A stretch of DNA of 64,000 nucleotides from Bacteroidota bacterium. Its GTDB lineage: Bacteria > Bacteroidota > Bacteroidia > M30B66. Under the pieces are notes generated by a model. That model was not told where the DNA came from, ran no database searches, and saw only the letters and a program-made list of their open reading frames with translations. Below, piece by piece: positions 19,728 to 25,474 of the stretch. The DNA is taken from positions 124,001 through 188,000 of the forward strand of contig JAIXUS010000045.1 of assembly GCA_027483445.1 (NCBI GenBank), given 5' to 3'. The translations under genes and the position numbers were made by a program. Each line of letters starts with the position of its first letter. The stretch's first letter is position 1.

Positions 19728-19784
19728 AGACCCCGTCTTCATCGGCTTCCCTTCTTGGGCAGCGGGTGAAGGCGGGGTCTTTTG
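19728..19784 (+). terminator. Rho-independent terminator of the prophage late operon
   Basis: A 13-base stem, AGACCCCGTCTTC at 19728-19740 paired with GAAGGCGGGGTCT at 19768-19780 (12 Watson-Crick pairs and one G-U), with a 27-base loop, then TTTTGTCGTTT. Stem and T-run are in the correct order for the + strand. It lies 62 bases after the holin stop and before the HTH-NusG gene. Confidence 0.8.
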
Positions 19785-19885
19785 TCGTTTGTGCGCCAGA
19801 AATCTGCAGATCGTCTGCCAGATGGCCTTGGCTTTGTTCGCGAACAGCGCCTTCATGGAGGCATGTTCACCTTGCCCCACTTCCC

Positions 19886-20803
19886 ATGGCCCCGCGCCTG
19901 CTGACCTCACCGCAAGCGGCCGAGCGTCTGGGCCTGCCGGTGCAGGCGCTCTACAAGCTGCGCGATGCCGACGAGGGTCTGGCCATCACCCAGACCGGCC
20001 TGCAGGTCGGCTACCAGCTTGAAGACATCCAGGCTTATGAGCGCCGCGAGATGCTGGCCCTGGTGGAAAAGACCCTGGCGGCCGAACGACCGCTGCCGCT
20101 GATCCGAGCCATGGCGCAGCTGCTTCGCTCGCCGCCGCCGGCCGATGGATGGCCTGTACCCACGCCCAGCCCGAAACCGAAGCCCTTACCGCCGTCCGCT
20201 CCCCCGTCCGATCCCCCCAAGCGGGTGCTAGCGACCGAGCCCGCAGCAGCCGACGCACCGGTACTTGATCCACCTGCACCGGCAGTTCACACCCCGCCCA
20301 GCTCCATGGCCTGGTTCCTCGTGCGCAGCAAACCCCGGCAGGAATCAGTGGCACTCACCCATCTCGCCCGCCAAGGCTACGAGTCCTACCTCCCCCTGTT
20401 CGCCTCCGAAAAGCTCGTCCGCCGCAAACCCACGGTCGTGCAAGAACCCATGTTCGCGCGCTACCTCTTCGTGCGGCTCGACACCTCGGGAAACGGCCAA
20501 AGCTGGAGCCCGATCCGGTCGACGGTCGGTGTCAGCGAATTGGTCTCCTTCGGCAGCCGACCCGCTCGGGTCGATGCGGCCCTGATTACCAGTCTGCGCG
20601 AACGCGAAATGGCGCAGCAGGCCGATCCCGACGCCTTGTTCGCTGCTGGCGACAGCGTGCGCATCACCGAAGGGGCGTTTGCCGGGCTGGAGGCGATCTA
20701 CCAGATGAACGACGCGGAGGGCCGCGCCATGGTGCTGCTGGACCTCCTGAGCAAACCCGTGGCCATGACGATCGACGCAGCCAGACTGCGCAAGGTGGGG
20801 TGA
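19886..20803 (+). CDS. HTH-NusG fusion protein (RfaH-like antiterminator with N-terminal DNA-binding domain)
   Basis: A 305-residue protein in three parts. Residues about 4-55 form an excisionase/MerR-type helix-turn-helix (TSPQAAERLGLPVQALYKLR, then GYQLEDIQAYERRE). Residues about 85-145 are a Pro/Ala-rich linker. Residues about 147-305 are a complete NusG-type unit: NGN domain (MAWFLVRSKPRQESVALTHL, FARYLFVRLD) and KOW domain (GDSVRITEGAFAGLEAIYQ). The NusG part is clearly similar to the stand-alone RfaH-like protein at 24694. NusG paralogues bind RNA polymerase and suppress pausing and termination. The HTH would give it a DNA address; that is inference. The ATG at 19886 is preferred over open frame further upstream, which runs through the terminator hairpin. 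Confidence 0.8.
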   Translation: MAPRLLTSPQAAERLGLPVQALYKLRDADEGLAITQTGLQVGYQLEDIQAYERREMLALVEKTLAAERPLPLIRAMAQLLRSPPPADGWPVPTPSPKPKPLPPSAPPSDPPKRVLATEPAAADAPVLDPPAPAVHTPPSSMAWFLVRSKPRQESVALTHLARQGYESYLPLFASEKLVRRKPTVVQEPMFARYLFVRLDTSGNGQSWSPIRSTVGVSELVSFGSRPARVDAALITSLREREMAQQADPDALFAAGDSVRITEGAFAGLEAIYQMNDAEGRAMVLLDLLSKPVAMTIDAARLRKVG

Positions 20804-20937
20804 TGCATGACCACACACCGCCTGCCTGCGCCACTTTATCTCGGCGGTATCCCCTGCATGACCTTGATACGGCTTGGCCTTCGAAGCCAACATGGACCGA
20901 CACAACAAAAAGACTGATCGATCATGGCATTGACTGA
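20803..20937 (+). CDS. Possible 44-codon coupling ORF between HTH-NusG and recombinase genes
   Basis: An ATG at 20803 overlaps the stop of the HTH-NusG gene (TGATG) and opens a 44-residue frame that ends at 20937, 14 bases inside the recombinase gene. The recombinase start at 20924 has no clear Shine-Dalgarno sequence, so this frame could bring ribosomes to it. The peptide (rich in Pro, Thr, Asp) resembles nothing I know. It may be chance; confidence is low. Confidence 0.22.
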   Translation: MHDHTPPACATLSRRYPLHDLDTAWPSKPTWTDTTKRLIDHGID

Positions 20938-22492
20938 CACCACCACCGACGTCCAACCCAACACCAAACCCTTCCGCGCCGCGCAGTACGTGCGCATGTC
21001 CACCGAGCACCAGCAGTATTCGACGCTCAACCAGGCCGACAAGATTCTCGAGTACGCGCAAAAGCGAGGGATTGAAATCGTGCGCACCTATGCCGACGAC
21101 GGCAAGAGTGGGCTTTCCATCGGCGGTCGCGCCTCCCTGCAACGGCTGATCGCCGACGTCGAATCCGGCAACACCGATTTCAATCTGATCCTGGTCTACG
21201 ACGTTAGCCGCTGGGGACGGTTTCAGGATGCGGATGAATCCGCCTATTACGAGTACATCTGCAAACGCAACGGCATCAGCGTTGCCTATGTCGCCGAGCA
21301 GTTTGAAAACGATGGCTCTCCCGTCTCCACCATCGTCAAGGGCGTCAAGCGCGCCATGGCCGGCGAGTACAGCCGCGAGCTTTCGGCTAAGGTCTTTGCC
21401 GGCCAGTGCCGATTGATCGAACTGGGTTTCCGCCAGGGCGGCCCGGCCGGCTTTGGTCTGCGCCGGGTGCTGGTCGACCAGACCGGTGCCATCAAGGCCA
21501 CCTTGAAACCCGGTGAACACAAAAGCCTGCAAACCGACCGGGTGATTTTGGTGCCGGGGCCAGAGTCCGAAGTGGCCATCGTCAACCGGATCTACCGCTG
21601 GCTGGTCGATGACGATCTGCCCCTAGCTGAAATCGCTCAGCGGCTCAACGACATCCCCGTTTACACCGATCGTGATTGCCCCTGGACCTACAGCACGGTG
21701 CGCCAGGTGCTGACCAACGAGAAGTACATCGGTAACAACGTCTACAACCGCCATTCCTTCAAGCTCAAGAAAAAGCACGTCGACAACCCGCCGCAGATGT
21801 GGATCCGCAAGCAAGGGGCATTCGAGGGGGTCGTGCCGCTGGACACCTTCATGGCCGTGCAGGAAATCCTGGCCGAGCGCAGTCGCCGATTCTCAGATGA
21901 GGAGCTTCTGGAACATCTGCGGGCTCTGTACCAGGAGCGCGGCACCCTCTCGGGCCTGATCATCAATGAGGCCCCTGCACTGCCAAGTGCCGCCACCTAC
22001 ATCCAGCGCTTTGGCAGCTTGAGCAAAGCCTATGAACTGGTGGGCTTTCGCCCCGGGCGCGATCTTGAATTTCTCGAAATCAACCGGCGCCTGCGCCAGT
22101 TGCATCCGGAAATCGTCGAACGCACCCAGCACACGATCGCCGAGCTGGGCGGCGAAATCTGGCGCGACCCGCAAACCGACCTGCTGCACCTGAACCAGGA
22201 ACTGGTCATCAGCCTGGTGCTTGCACGCTGCCAGCAATTGCCCAATGGCCTGCAGCGCTGGCGCATCCGCTTTGACCCCAGTCGCTACCACCCGGACATC
22301 ACAGTGGCTGTGCGGCTTGATCCCGGCAATGCCGCTGAACTCGATTACTACCTGCTGCCACGCCTGGACCTGCCCAGTCAGGAATTACAGGTGACAGCGC
22401 GCAACAGCGCCGAGATCGAATGCTTCCGCTTTGACGACCTGAACTTCTTCTACGGCATGTCCGAGCGCGAACGCCTGCAACGACGCATTTGA
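20924..22492 (+). CDS. Large serine recombinase / site-specific integrase-type
   Basis: A 522-residue protein of the large serine recombinase class. The catalytic domain (about residues 18-165) has the nucleophile Ser26 in AAQYVRMSTEHQQ, conserved YADDGKSGLSIGGRASLQRLI near residue 63, and VYDVSRWGRF near residue 92. A recombinase domain follows (about 180-300) with GFRQGGPAGFGLRR and STVRQVLTNEKYIGNNVYN. The C-terminal 200 residues lack the Cys-rich zinc ribbon of many phage integrases. These enzymes join or excise DNA at specific att sites. It is followed by two ParB/RepB-like genes, an arrangement that suggests one functional cassette. Target sites are not identifiable here. Confidence 0.88.
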   Translation: MALTDTTTDVQPNTKPFRAAQYVRMSTEHQQYSTLNQADKILEYAQKRGIEIVRTYADDGKSGLSIGGRASLQRLIADVESGNTDFNLILVYDVSRWGRFQDADESAYYEYICKRNGISVAYVAEQFENDGSPVSTIVKGVKRAMAGEYSRELSAKVFAGQCRLIELGFRQGGPAGFGLRRVLVDQTGAIKATLKPGEHKSLQTDRVILVPGPESEVAIVNRIYRWLVDDDLPLAEIAQRLNDIPVYTDRDCPWTYSTVRQVLTNEKYIGNNVYNRHSFKLKKKHVDNPPQMWIRKQGAFEGVVPLDTFMAVQEILAERSRRFSDEELLEHLRALYQERGTLSGLIINEAPALPSAATYIQRFGSLSKAYELVGFRPGRDLEFLEINRRLRQLHPEIVERTQHTIAELGGEIWRDPQTDLLHLNQELVISLVLARCQQLPNGLQRWRIRFDPSRYHPDITVAVRLDPGNAAELDYYLLPRLDLPSQELQVTARNSAEIECFRFDDLNFFYGMSERERLQRRI

Positions 22493-22530: not shown

Positions 22531-22581
22531 ATGACACCACGCCAGCCCCAACCACACACCGATAGGAGCCCCCCATGCTGA
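22531..22581 (+). CDS. Possible 16-codon leader ORF upstream of the first ParB-like gene
   Basis: ATG at 22531 is preceded by a good Shine-Dalgarno sequence (AGAAAGGA, 22515-22522, eight bases away) and encodes a Pro-rich 16-residue peptide that ends at 22581, overlapping the start of the ParB-like gene at 22575. Such short overlapping leaders can couple or tune translation. No family is known; it could be fortuitous. Confidence 0.25.
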   Translation: MTPRQPQPHTDRSPPC

Positions 22582-23474
22582 CCGATACCCCCGAAACCGT
22601 CACCCTGATCCCGATCGCCCGCGTGGAGATCCTCAACTCCCGCGAACGCAATATGAAAATCTTCGAGGATATCGTCGAGAACATCAAATCGATCGGCTTA
22701 AAGAAACCCATCACCGTCACCGAACGCCCCGGCGACGATGGCCAGCCGAAATACCTGCTGGTCTGCGGCGAGGGGCGATTGAATGCCTTCCGCATCCTGG
22801 GCGAAACCCACATCCCCGCCCTGGTGGTCGATGTCAGCGATGAAGACGCCTTCATCATGAGCCTGGCCGAGAACATCGCCCGGCGCGGCCACCGACCCCT
22901 GGAAATCTTGGCCGACATCGAAATCCTGCGCAAACGCGGCTACGACGCCGACACCATCATCCACAAAACCGGCCTCTCGCCCAAGTACGTCAAGGACATC
23001 GTCTTCCTGCTCGACCAGGGGGAGGAGCGTCTGATCGAAGGCGTGCAGCGCGGCGCAATCCCACTCACCACCGCCCTGGAGATTGCCCGCGCCAAGGACG
23101 ATGACGAAAGCCTGGGCGAAATGCTCCAGGAGGCCTACGAAAACGGCCAACTCAACCGGCGTCAGATCATCGAGACCAAGCGCCTCGTCGAAAAGCGACA
23201 GGAACACGGCCCCGGCTCGCCGAACCCCGGCCAGATCAAGCCGCCCACCTCCAGCTACAGCCTGGTGCGGACCTACCAGCGTGAAGTGGAGCGGCAGCGC
23301 AAGATGGTCTTGAAAGCCGAGCATGCGCACCAGCGCCTGCTGTTGGTTGTCCAGGGCCTGAAAAAACTCTTCGGCGACGAGCATTTCGTCAACCTGCTGC
23401 GCGCCGAGGGGCTGGACACCCTGCCCAAGTACCTCGCTGAGCGTATCGATAACTTCAATGGAGCCCCCGTATGA
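22575..23474 (+). CDS. ParB/RepB-like protein 1 (ParB N-terminal domain)
   Basis: A 299-residue protein. Residues about 10-105 form a ParB N-terminal domain: IPIARVEILNSRERN, then GLKKPITVTERPG, the ParB box equivalent CGEGRLNAFRILGE and SLAENIARR. An HTH-like stretch follows (about 120-150, GYDADTIIHKTGLSPKYVKDIV). The C-terminal part has long charged helices, including EVERQRKMVLKAEHAHQRLL. ParB domains bind CTP in chromosome and plasmid partition proteins and bind specific DNA; here no ParA and no replication gene accompany it. The stop overlaps the start of a second ParB-like gene by four bases. AGGAG at 22564-22568 precedes the start. Confidence 0.8.
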   Translation: MLTDTPETVTLIPIARVEILNSRERNMKIFEDIVENIKSIGLKKPITVTERPGDDGQPKYLLVCGEGRLNAFRILGETHIPALVVDVSDEDAFIMSLAENIARRGHRPLEILADIEILRKRGYDADTIIHKTGLSPKYVKDIVFLLDQGEERLIEGVQRGAIPLTTALEIARAKDDDESLGEMLQEAYENGQLNRRQIIETKRLVEKRQEHGPGSPNPGQIKPPTSSYSLVRTYQREVERQRKMVLKAEHAHQRLLLVVQGLKKLFGDEHFVNLLRAEGLDTLPKYLAERIDNFNGAPV

Positions 23475-24598
23475 ACCCCGCGAGCAATGCACAACCCAAG
23501 ATCACGCCGATGTACCCCGGTATCCATCAATCCGATTCGGAGGACGGTCCCGATTTACCCAAGGCGCCCTTGAACACCTTGCTCGGGTTCGATCTGGAAA
23601 CCTACCAGATCCCGCTTGACACCCTGATGCCCAGCAAGCGCATCCCCGACGGGGTCATGAGCACCCGCAAATACAAGCAGATCGTCTCGTCCATCCATGA
23701 AATCGGCCTGATCGAACCCCTATCCGTGATCCAGCACGACCCGGCCAAGCCGGAATTCATCCTGCTCGATGGGCATTTGCGGGTGCTGGCTTTGAAGGAC
23801 CTGGGCGTCCATGAAGCCCCCTGCCTGCTGGCCAAGGACGACGAGACGTACACCTACAACCACCGGATCAACCGGCTCTCGACCATCCAGGAACATTACA
23901 TGATCCGCCGCGCCATCGACCGAGGGGTGAGCAAGGAACGCCTGGCCCGGGCCTTTGGCGTGAACCTGAGTTCTATCAACCGGCGCATCAGCCTTCTGGA
24001 AGGCATTTGCCCTGACGCGATTGCCCGCCTGCAGGACAAGCAGTTCACCCCGGATGTGACCCGGGTGCTGCGCAACATGAAAGCCGCCCGGCAGGTGGAG
24101 GCGGTGGAACTGATGGTCGCCAGCAACACCATCACCGTGGCGCATGCCGATGCCCTGCTGAAAGCCACGCCACCGGAGCAACGCACCGACTTCAAACCCG
24201 CTGAACGCGACCGGCAACTGGCGCCCATCGAGCAGATCGTCAAACTCGAAAAGGAAATGAGCCAGGTCCAAACCCAGTACAAGGACGCTGAAGAGAACTA
24301 CGGCTCCGATTTGCTGAACCTGGTGGTTGCCAAAGGCTACTTGACCAAGCTACTCGGTAACGATGCCGTCAAAAGTTACATCACCCGACACGAACCCGAA
24401 ATCCTCGAGCATTTCGAACTGGTGGTGAACACCGTCAGCATGGAGGAAGCCGTGCAGCAGCAACTGGAGGCCGATGGCGAATTCGAGGAGGATCCGGACG
24501 CCGACAGCGATGCCCCACGTACCACTGACAACACCCACCCTGATTCCAAGAATGGCAACGAAACCCCAGTGCCAGGAGAGAACGCCGCCACCGAATAG
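23471..24598 (+). CDS. ParB/RepB-like protein 2 (RepB C-terminal domain type)
   Basis: A 375-residue protein. The ParB N-terminal domain covers about residues 40-135 (DTLMPSKRIPDGVMSTRKY, LLDGHLRVLALKDLG). An HTH region follows (about 150-175, SKERLARAFGVNLSSINRRI). The rest (about 180-340) matches the RepB-type C-terminal domain, with QFTPDVTRVLRNMKAARQVE, QTQYKDAEENYGSDLLNLV and LTKLLGNDAVKSYI. The last 35 residues are acidic and disordered. RepB proteins bind centromere-like sites in repABC plasmids, but no repA or repC is present. It overlaps the first ParB-like gene by four bases, so the pair is one translation unit and may work as a heteromer. Confidence 0.82.
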   Translation: MNPASNAQPKITPMYPGIHQSDSEDGPDLPKAPLNTLLGFDLETYQIPLDTLMPSKRIPDGVMSTRKYKQIVSSIHEIGLIEPLSVIQHDPAKPEFILLDGHLRVLALKDLGVHEAPCLLAKDDETYTYNHRINRLSTIQEHYMIRRAIDRGVSKERLARAFGVNLSSINRRISLLEGICPDAIARLQDKQFTPDVTRVLRNMKAARQVEAVELMVASNTITVAHADALLKATPPEQRTDFKPAERDRQLAPIEQIVKLEKEMSQVQTQYKDAEENYGSDLLNLVVAKGYLTKLLGNDAVKSYITRHEPEILEHFELVVNTVSMEEAVQQQLEADGEFEEDPDADSDAPRTTDNTHPDSKNGNETPVPGENAATE

Positions 24599-24661: not shown

Positions 24662-24693
24662 GCTGACAATAAAGATAACCTTCGGAGGTGGCG

Positions 24694-25191
24694 ATGCACT
24701 GGTATCTCGTTCATACCAAGCCAAGGCAGGAAAAGTGCGCCCTCGAAAACCTCGATCGGCAGGGTTATCAGTGCTACCTCCCGACGATTCCCTCTGAGAG
24801 GCTCCGCCAAGGATTGCTAACCGTTGCGGATGAGCCGCTGTTCCCGCGTTACTTGTTCATCCGCCTGGGGCAGGGGGATTCGGCCAAGAGCTGGGCGCCG
24901 ATCCGTTCGACCAAGGGCGTCAGTCGTCTGGTCAGCTTCGGGGTAGAACCGGCGCGGGTCGATGATGGCCTGATCGAACTGTTGCGAACACAAGAAGCAT
25001 CAGTACAAACTGAGCCGGAGCGGCTGTTCAAGACCGGGGAGCGTGTGCGCCTGACCGAAGTGCCGTTTGCCGGCATTGAGGGCATCTACCAAATGGCAGA
25101 CGGCGAGCGCCGGGTCATGGTGCTGATCGAGATTCTTAGCAAGCCTGTCGCAGTGCGCGTTGCGCCGGCCAGTTTACGCAAGGCGAGTTGA
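24694..25191 (+). CDS. rfaH: RfaH-like specialised NusG paralogue, transcription antiterminator
   Basis: A 165-residue protein, the size of E. coli RfaH (162). The NGN domain (1-105) starts MHWYLVHTKPRQEKCALENL and has the conserved PLFPRYLFIRL near residue 50; the KOW domain (about 112-165) has GERVRLTEVPFAGIEGIYQ. RfaH loads onto RNA polymerase paused at an ops element and keeps it transcribing long surface-polysaccharide operons; its KOW domain can also recruit ribosomes. An exact ops element lies 170 bases after this gene, in front of the polysaccharide operon, which supports RfaH rather than general NusG. ATG 24694 is chosen with GGAGG at 24684-24688; a GTG at 24688 is less likely. Confidence 0.87.
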   Translation: MHWYLVHTKPRQEKCALENLDRQGYQCYLPTIPSERLRQGLLTVADEPLFPRYLFIRLGQGDSAKSWAPIRSTKGVSRLVSFGVEPARVDDGLIELLRTQEASVQTEPERLFKTGERVRLTEVPFAGIEGIYQMADGERRVMVLIEILSKPVAVRVAPASLRKAS

Positions 25192-25360: not shown

Positions 25361-25372
25361 GGCGGTAGCGTG
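25361..25372 (+). promoter_or_regulatory. ops element (RfaH recruitment site)
   Basis: GGCGGTAGCGTG matches all 12 bases of the enterobacterial ops element and is followed by CTTATTTTC, as in ops regions where a T-rich stretch follows. It is on the coding strand of the downstream operon, 102 bases ahead of the ABC transporter start, and 170 bases after the rfaH-like gene. Known role: RNA polymerase pauses here and RfaH binds the exposed non-template strand. Confidence 0.85.
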
Positions 25373-25474
25373 CTTATTTTCCCAATGCGTGACTTCTCGC
25401 CTCTAGGTTCTCCTGAGTTCCGGGTGTGCGGCCTATTTTCATTTTTAGCCCACCGCCATCTAATTGAATAGCAA

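What the first reader, a model, noticed from the sequence alone, without database searches (positions are those of the whole stretch)
19886..20803. NusG paralogue with an N-terminal excisionase-type HTH domain
This protein joins a DNA-binding HTH (TSPQAAERLGLPVQALYKLR) by a Pro-rich linker to a full NGN-KOW unit. NusG and RfaH normally find their targets through RNA polymerase and, for RfaH, ops. An HTH would tether an antiterminator to a DNA address directly. I do not know a described regulator with this design. It is located after the prophage terminator and at the head of the recombinase-ParB-ParB cassette, so it may control the cassette, the late operon or the sugar operon.
Basis: partly seen in the sequence, partly recalled or inferred. 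Interest (0 to 1): 0.75.

Follow-up and report, generated by a model that had tools for sequence, protein, structure and literature searches.

The report
RfaH-type antiterminator fused to DNA-binding domain
A mobile gene cassette in environmental bacteria carries an RfaH-like protein that helps RNA polymerase keep transcribing, and this protein has an extra DNA-binding domain at its front, so it may be loaded onto polymerase at chosen promoters rather than at the usual RfaH signal.

Summary
Window 19886-20803 (+) encodes one 305-residue protein: an Xis/MerR-like winged HTH (residues ~5-82), a Pro-rich linker (~84-139) and an RfaH-type NGN-KOW. It is neither a strain accident nor an annotation artefact. 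I found 31 full-length fusions, including a second copy in the same genome. The HTH is under purifying selection as strong as the NGN (dN/dS about 0.04-0.17 in close pairs), while the linker is mostly relaxed.

The fusion belongs to one clade of a mobile recombinase-ParB-ParB cassette. Recombinases at least 80% identical to the window's, where the upstream region is held, carry it just upstream; those at most 74% identical do not. A promoter-like element precedes the fusion gene and another precedes the recombinase. A second, ordinary RfaH and an exact ops site follow the ParB genes, at the head of a sugar operon. The fusion has replaced RfaH R73, an ops contact, with V/I/L in 31 of 31 copies.

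Best model (inferred): the HTH loads the RfaH part onto polymerase at the cassette's own promoters, as lambda Q and Pseudomonas AlpA do with other effectors. No binding data exist. I found no description of this design in the papers searched. New variant of a known kind.

The parts
19729..19783 (+). intrinsic terminator hairpin closing the prophage tail/holin operon, just upstream of the fusion gene
   Evidence: RNA fold -42.1 kcal/mol, z -7.94; hairpin conserved in alignment of upstream regions
19828..19856 (+). promoter-like element H (TTGGCT-N17-CTTCAT) with palindrome TGTTCGCGAACA in the spacer
   Evidence: pattern with 17-bp spacing found in 26 of 26 fusion loci examined
19863..19904 (+). 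possible 13-codon leader ORF overlapping the fusion start in another frame, GGAGG just before it; unexplained
   Evidence: read directly from sequence; ATG 23 nt upstream of the fusion ATG conserved in window-type loci
19886..20803 (+). HTH-RfaH fusion gene (305 aa)
   Evidence: 31 full-length homologues
19898..20131 (+). winged HTH domain (residues 5-82), Xis/RdfS/MerR-like
   Evidence: AF2 pLDDT ~71-83 for residues 1-60; 4j2n and 8dgl fold matches; dN/dS 0.04-0.17 in close pairs
20135..20302 (+). Pro/Ala-rich linker (residues 84-139), predicted disordered
   Evidence: pLDDT <50 over 85-138; dN/dS mostly 0.3-0.66; 37.5% Pro
20306..20608 (+). NGN domain (residues 141-241)
   Evidence: Pfam NusG E 1.9e-17; VIA-align Z 11.4, 2.4 A over 91 residues to RfaH 8phk
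20639..20800 (+). KOW domain (residues 252-305), RfaH-type, R138 equivalent R280 invariant
   Evidence: TIGR01955 match 143-299; residue table
20864..20893 (+). promoter-like element R (TTGATA-N18-CAACAT) with TTCGAA inverted repeat in the spacer, upstream of the recombinase
   Evidence: 30 of 30 fusion-associated recombinases score 19.5-25.5 of 25.5; 60 recombinases without fusion at most 16.0; shuffles at most 17.0
20924..22492 (+). large serine recombinase
   Evidence: Pfam Resolvase and Recombinase
22575..23474 (+). ParB-like protein 1
   Evidence: Pfam RepB/ParB_N, NCBIfam parB_part
23471..24598 (+). ParB/RepB-like protein 2
   Evidence: Pfam RepB E 3.5e-36
24688..25191 (+). short, conventional RfaH paralogue (no HTH)
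   Evidence: TIGR01955 166.8 bits
25330..25373 (+). conserved box ending in an exact ops element (GGCGGTAGCGTGC, 25361-25373), upstream of the sugar operon
   Evidence: only exact ops match in the window; box conserved after the short RfaH in other loci

Best explanation
The protein is an RfaH-type processivity factor that carries its own DNA-addressing module. Shown by sequence: a conserved wHTH + flexible linker + NGN-KOW protein, genetically tied to one clade of the recombinase-ParB-ParB cassette, with a promoter-like element before its own gene (H) and another before the recombinase (R). Inferred: the wHTH binds in or next to these promoters, probably the spacer between the -35 and -10 boxes; the linker lets the NGN reach polymerase; the NGN-KOW, autoinhibited like RfaH, is handed to polymerase there and keeps transcription going through recombinase-parB-parB and into the region beyond. 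The short RfaH then acts in the usual way at ops to drive the sugar operon. Thus the fusion would address polymerase by duplex DNA at the promoter, and the short RfaH by ops.
For: 31 full-length fusions. HTH dN/dS about 0.04-0.17 in close pairs, linker mostly 0.3-0.66. Xis/RdfS/MerR-like wHTH fold. Fusion present upstream of every recombinase at least 80% identical whose upstream region is held (20 IMG/VR contigs, some near-identical), absent from those at most 74% identical, and absent from the plasmid cassettes inspected. Element R in 30/30 against 0/60, element H spacing in 26/26; in one MAG group H is nearly identical to R. K10, R23, Q24, E48, R138 equivalents invariant in fusions, R73 replaced by V/I/L in 31/31, while nine short RfaHs of the cassette type have K73. 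K10, H20, R23 and R73 are the residues that contact ops (PMC5995543). Precedent: AlpA binds an element between -35 and -10 and is loaded onto RNAP (PMC7969949, PMC9371919).
Against: No binding or transcription data. Element R and the fusion share one recombinase clade, so their co-occurrence may be common descent. Elements H and R are alike in one type only; in the others they share little beyond the -35 box. In L107 and L115 no short RfaH was seen between ParB2 and ops, yet ops is present, so the fusion may act at ops there. Some RfaHs without an HTH also lack R/K at position 73. HTH_17 score is below the Pfam cut-off.
Confidence: 0.42

Rival explanations
1. The fusion is recruited at ops like ordinary RfaH and serves the polysaccharide operon; the HTH is an add-on for autorepression or fine tuning.
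For: RfaH model above cut-off; K10, R23, Q24 equivalents invariant; ops follows ParB2 in L107 and L115 with no short RfaH found between; sugar genes follow in L115.
Against: R73 lost in 31/31 and H20 equivalent kept in only 6/31; a short RfaH sits next to ops in the window and most cassettes; the fusion tracks the recombinase, not the sugar genes, and in L030-L038 it lies beside toxin-antitoxin and defence genes.
Confidence: 0.25
2. The HTH works as an excisionase / recombination directionality factor or architectural partner for the adjacent large serine recombinase; the NGN part couples it to transcription of the locus.
For: Closest folds are Xis and RdfS; gene directly upstream of the recombinase clade; weak PHROG excisionase hit; a weak standalone HTH relative lies beside a tyrosine integrase.
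Against: Related recombinase-ParB-ParB cassettes do without it; elements H and R look like promoters with fixed -35/-10-like spacing, and cargo boundaries lie near the fusion stop codon rather than at R; NGN-KOW is kept under strong selection.
Confidence: 0.17
3. The HTH is a plain repressor of its own promoter or a dimerisation domain, and the NGN-KOW acts on polymerase without a DNA address, like housekeeping NusG.
For: HTH_17 proteins are often small repressors (general knowledge); element H lies directly upstream of the fusion gene.
Against: An element also precedes the recombinase; the RfaH-type E48-R138 autoinhibition pair is invariant, which argues for recruitment-dependent action.
Confidence: 0.1

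Closest known systems
RfaH (NusG paralogue, TIGR01955)
   Same: NGN-KOW, E48-R138 autoinhibition pair, K10/R23/Q24 equivalents; best fold match is RfaH, including its autoinhibited form on an ops-paused complex
   Different: extra N-terminal wHTH and Pro-rich linker; R73 replaced by V/I/L in all; gene belongs to a recombinase cassette
Xis / RdfS excisionases and other MerR-like small wHTH proteins (HTH_17)
   Same: helix-turn-helix, two-strand wing and long helix of residues ~2-64 (4j2n, 8c3t, 8dgl)
   Different: those are small stand-alone proteins; here the domain is fused to an RfaH and adds a further helix (71-81)
Lambda Q and Pseudomonas aeruginosa AlpA antiterminators
   Same: works-like comparison only: promoter DNA element bound by an HTH, then loading on RNAP (PMC7969949, PMC9371919)
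   Different: AlpA's effector part is a ring in the RNA exit channel, not an NGN-KOW; no sequence relation shown here
UpxY and LoaP specialised NusG paralogues
   Same: dedicated NusG paralogues linked to long operons (general knowledge); matched weakly
   Different: no HTH; scores far below their model cut-offs
Recombinase-ParB-RepB cassettes on proteobacterial plasmids
   Same: same three-gene core, recombinase about 54-66% identical
   Different: no HTH-RfaH, and none of the 60 HTH-minus recombinase upstream regions tested (five from plasmids, the rest viral or genomic) has element R

Membership tests
RfaH (TIGR01955) | curated HMM above cut-off | tested here: met
   157.7 bits against 144.5
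RfaH (TIGR01955) | autoinhibition salt bridge E48-R138 | tested here: met
   E and R in 31/31 fusions
RfaH (TIGR01955) | ops-contacting residues K10, H20, R23, R73 | tested here: not met
   K10 and R23 31/31, H20 6/31, R73 0/31; roles from PMC5995543. So it is filed as an RfaH-like NusG paralogue, not as an ops-dependent RfaH
RfaH (TIGR01955) | alpha-to-beta switch of the C-terminal domain | not testable with these tools
   AF2 shows a helical C-terminal part at low confidence only
Xis/HTH_17 excisionases | Pfam HTH_17 above gathering score | tested here: not met
   18.1 bits (whole protein) and 21 bits (domain alone) against 27
Xis/HTH_17 excisionases | excisionase wHTH fold | tested here: met
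   4j2n TM (target) 0.67-0.69, prob 1.00; 8dgl prob 0.97-0.98; 8c3t Z 6.1, 2.6 A over 56 residues
Xis/HTH_17 excisionases | small stand-alone protein promoting excision | tested here: not met
   fused to NGN-KOW in 31/31; excision activity itself not testable
Q/AlpA-type promoter-loaded antiterminators (function class) | binding element within the promoter | tested here: inconclusive
   conserved promoter-like elements H and R; binding not tested

The most novel reading that the evidence does not exclude
A natural modular antiterminator in which a promoter-bound winged HTH delivers a metamorphic RfaH-type NGN-KOW to RNA polymerase at a duplex DNA address, replacing ops recognition, and works in relay with a conventional ops-dependent RfaH in the same mobile cassette.
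Probability: 0.35. Interest if true: 0.8.

Novelty: new variant of a known kind. Interest (0 to 1): 0.62.

Why it matters
NusG-family factors are known to find targets through polymerase pauses and ops-type signals. A selected fusion to a sequence-specific DNA-binding domain would be a second, independent way to give an NGN-KOW its target. It would show that Q-type promoter loading and NusG-type effectors can be combined, would give a tool to direct an antiterminator to a chosen promoter, and would put two RfaH paralogues with different addressing into one mobile element that sits at the head of surface-polysaccharide genes.

Tried and rejected
Fusion artefact or internal start: rejected, as no Met is conserved at the NGN start and the HTH is under purifying selection. 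Longer GTG start at 19766: rejected, because it runs through the terminator and other types start elsewhere. Prophage late regulator: not favoured, as it occurs in non-phage contexts and is not seen in the third prophage. HTH-fused NusG elsewhere: in a sample of 274 class genomes, seven NusG genes with long open frames were inspected and all were out-of-frame upstream sequence, not HTH; not every hit was listed. Stand-alone form of this HTH: about 790 class- and order-level genomes gave only weak excisionase-like hits besides true fusions. AF2 of the HTH alone was poorer (mean pLDDT 62.6), so the full model was used for the fold search. Rfam: no match in the window. The sigma-70 consensus scan did not list H or R: their -10-like boxes are weak. 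No paper found describing an HTH-NusG/RfaH fusion (open-access library only). Tree of NGN-KOW parts: fusions and one short RfaH (L050) group apart from the other short ones, but E. coli RfaH has a long branch, so the number of fusion events stays open. Pseudomonas AlpA is used as a functional precedent only; no homology to this HTH was tested. Host taxon of the window was not determined.

Full report
Observation. The ORF at 19886-20803 (+) gives one 305-residue protein. Residues 141-237 match Pfam NusG (E 1.9e-17), and residues 143-299 match the NCBI RfaH model above its cut-off (157.7 against 144.5 bits). The N-terminal part matches HTH_17 only weakly (18-21 bits, cut-off 27), but the AlphaFold2 model shows helices 8-15 and 19-28, strands 34-37 and 40-44 and helices 45-64 and 71-81, with pLDDT about 71-83 for residues 1-60, then a disordered stretch 85-138. 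Foldseek puts the NGN-KOW nearest RfaH (8pfg, 8pib: autoinhibited RfaH on an ops-paused complex) and also returns Xis (4j2n, prob 1.00), RdfS (8dgl), BldC and MerR-type chains. A second aligner gives RfaH Z 11.4, and for the HTH part GIsul2 excisionase Z 6.1 and Pukovnik Xis Z 5.6; these middling Z values support the fold class, not a function.

Is it a real fusion? The same genome holds a second full-length copy, 82% identical, in a related prophage in inverted orientation. Genome and viral collections gave further full-length copies at 49-94% identity, and contexts around the recombinase gave more; 31 were aligned (300-328 aa). In close pairs dN/dS is 0.04-0.17 for the HTH, 0.04-0.13 for the NGN and mostly 0.3-0.66 for the linker. 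The NGN is not preceded by a conserved Met. The fusion is therefore a selected two-module protein.

Where it lives. In the window the order is tail genes, holin, strong terminator, fusion, large serine recombinase, ParB, ParB/RepB, short RfaH, ops, sugar genes. The order fusion-recombinase-ParB-ParB is kept in the other loci where contigs reach, whereas the flanks change: holin and tail in many; toxin-antitoxin, Wadjet (JetA/JetB) and AbiL-like genes in one betaproteobacterial MAG with at least seven copies or fragments of the HTH part. A divergent third prophage in the same genome lacks the cassette by inspection of its gene list. Among 68 viral-contig recombinases, those at least 80% identical with their upstream region held (20 contigs) have the fusion just upstream, and those at most 74% identical do not. 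Recombinase-ParB-RepB trios without it are common on plasmids. So the fusion is a component of one clade of this mobile cassette, not a phage late gene.

Promoter-like elements. Upstream of the recombinase lies TTGATA-N18-CAACAT, with a TTCGAA inverted repeat in the spacer (20864-20893). Thirty of 30 fusion-linked recombinases have it (scores 19.5-25.5 of 25.5); 60 recombinases without the fusion reach at most 16.0 and shuffles 17.0. The seed was made from the fusion-linked set and these loci share descent, so this shows conservation and clade specificity, not binding. Upstream of the fusion lies TTG(A/G)CT-N17-(C/G)TTCAT in 26 of 26 loci examined. In the multi-copy MAG group (L030-L038) the element upstream of the fusion is itself nearly the R element (22-24 of 25.5). 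A sigma-70 consensus scan did not list either element, because the -10-like boxes are poor; they are promoter-like by position, spacing and -35 box only.

Addressing. E. coli RfaH reads ops with K10, H20, R23 and R73 (PMC5995543). In the fusions K10 and R23 are invariant, H20 is mostly N, and R73 is V, I or L in 31 of 31. Nine short RfaHs have K at 73, but five other short ones, without HTH, have P, T, L or I, so loss of R73 alone does not prove a new address. The window's short RfaH is followed by the only exact ops match in the window (25361-25373), inside a 44-bp box conserved in the other loci. In L107 and L115 ops follows ParB2 with no short RfaH found between, which leaves open that the fusion itself serves ops there.

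Mechanism. I favour a promoter-loading model: the wHTH binds in the H and R promoters, the linker lets the NGN reach polymerase, and the RfaH part then makes transcription of the recombinase-ParB-ParB unit processive; the short RfaH takes over at ops. The wHTH, its selection, the elements and the residue changes are shown; binding, loading and antitermination are inferred. The logic has precedent in Q and AlpA, where a DNA-binding antiterminator is loaded on polymerase at a promoter-embedded element (PMC7969949, PMC9371919), but there the effector is unrelated. Rivals are ordinary action at ops with an accessory HTH (0.25), a directionality-factor role for the recombinase (0.17) and a plain repressor or dimerisation domain (0.1).

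Novelty. Published surveys of RfaH and NusG that I could search (PMC13015549, PMC7593976, PMC7819879) gave no hit for an HTH-fused member; one mentions an HTH regulator as a gene neighbour of an RfaH cluster. The library is open-access only. I rate it a new variant of a known kind.

Noticed in passing
L025 2301-9025 (G000:C67): Complete Wadjet type I system (JetA-JetB-JetC-JetD) beside the second HTH-RfaH cassette copy of the same genome.
   Followed up: partly
L031 2065-7676: JetA/JetB-like and AbiL-like genes beside an HTH-RfaH copy in a betaproteobacterial MAG with at least seven copies or fragments of the HTH part; the fusion gene seems to mark boundaries of defence or toxin-antitoxin cargo.
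   Followed up: partly
19863-19904: Short ORF (13 codons) with GGAGG just before it overlaps the fusion start 23 nt out of frame; the 23-nt offset also occurs in the L111-L116 type, whereas other types start in frame at the upstream ATG. Leader, coupling or frameshift not resolved.
   Followed up: partly
L107 6370-8000; L126 6914-8000; L031 8952-9860; L033 3395-4430: Different cargo (glycosyltransferase-like, nucleotidyltransferase-like, toxin-antitoxin-like by eye) inserted between the fusion stop codon and element R.
   Followed up: no
G000:C67 10.7-40 kb, 43-70 kb and ~104 kb to the window: Three related prophage late modules in one contig, two of them inverted relative to each other and 84% identical over 28.7 kb; the third lacks the cassette.
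   Followed up: partly
L025 about 10770 (copy B): In the second copy the ops sequence is cut at GGCGGTA and followed by unrelated DNA, so the junction with the neighbouring genes falls inside ops.
   Followed up: no
L115 11736-12035; L107 after 11846: First gene after ops looks like a MarR-type regulator; in L115 it is followed by a nucleotide-sugar dehydrogenase-like gene (by eye, not searched).
   Followed up: no
C67 104347-105819: A second, different large serine recombinase at the left end of the window's prophage, probably its integrase (by eye).
   Followed up: no
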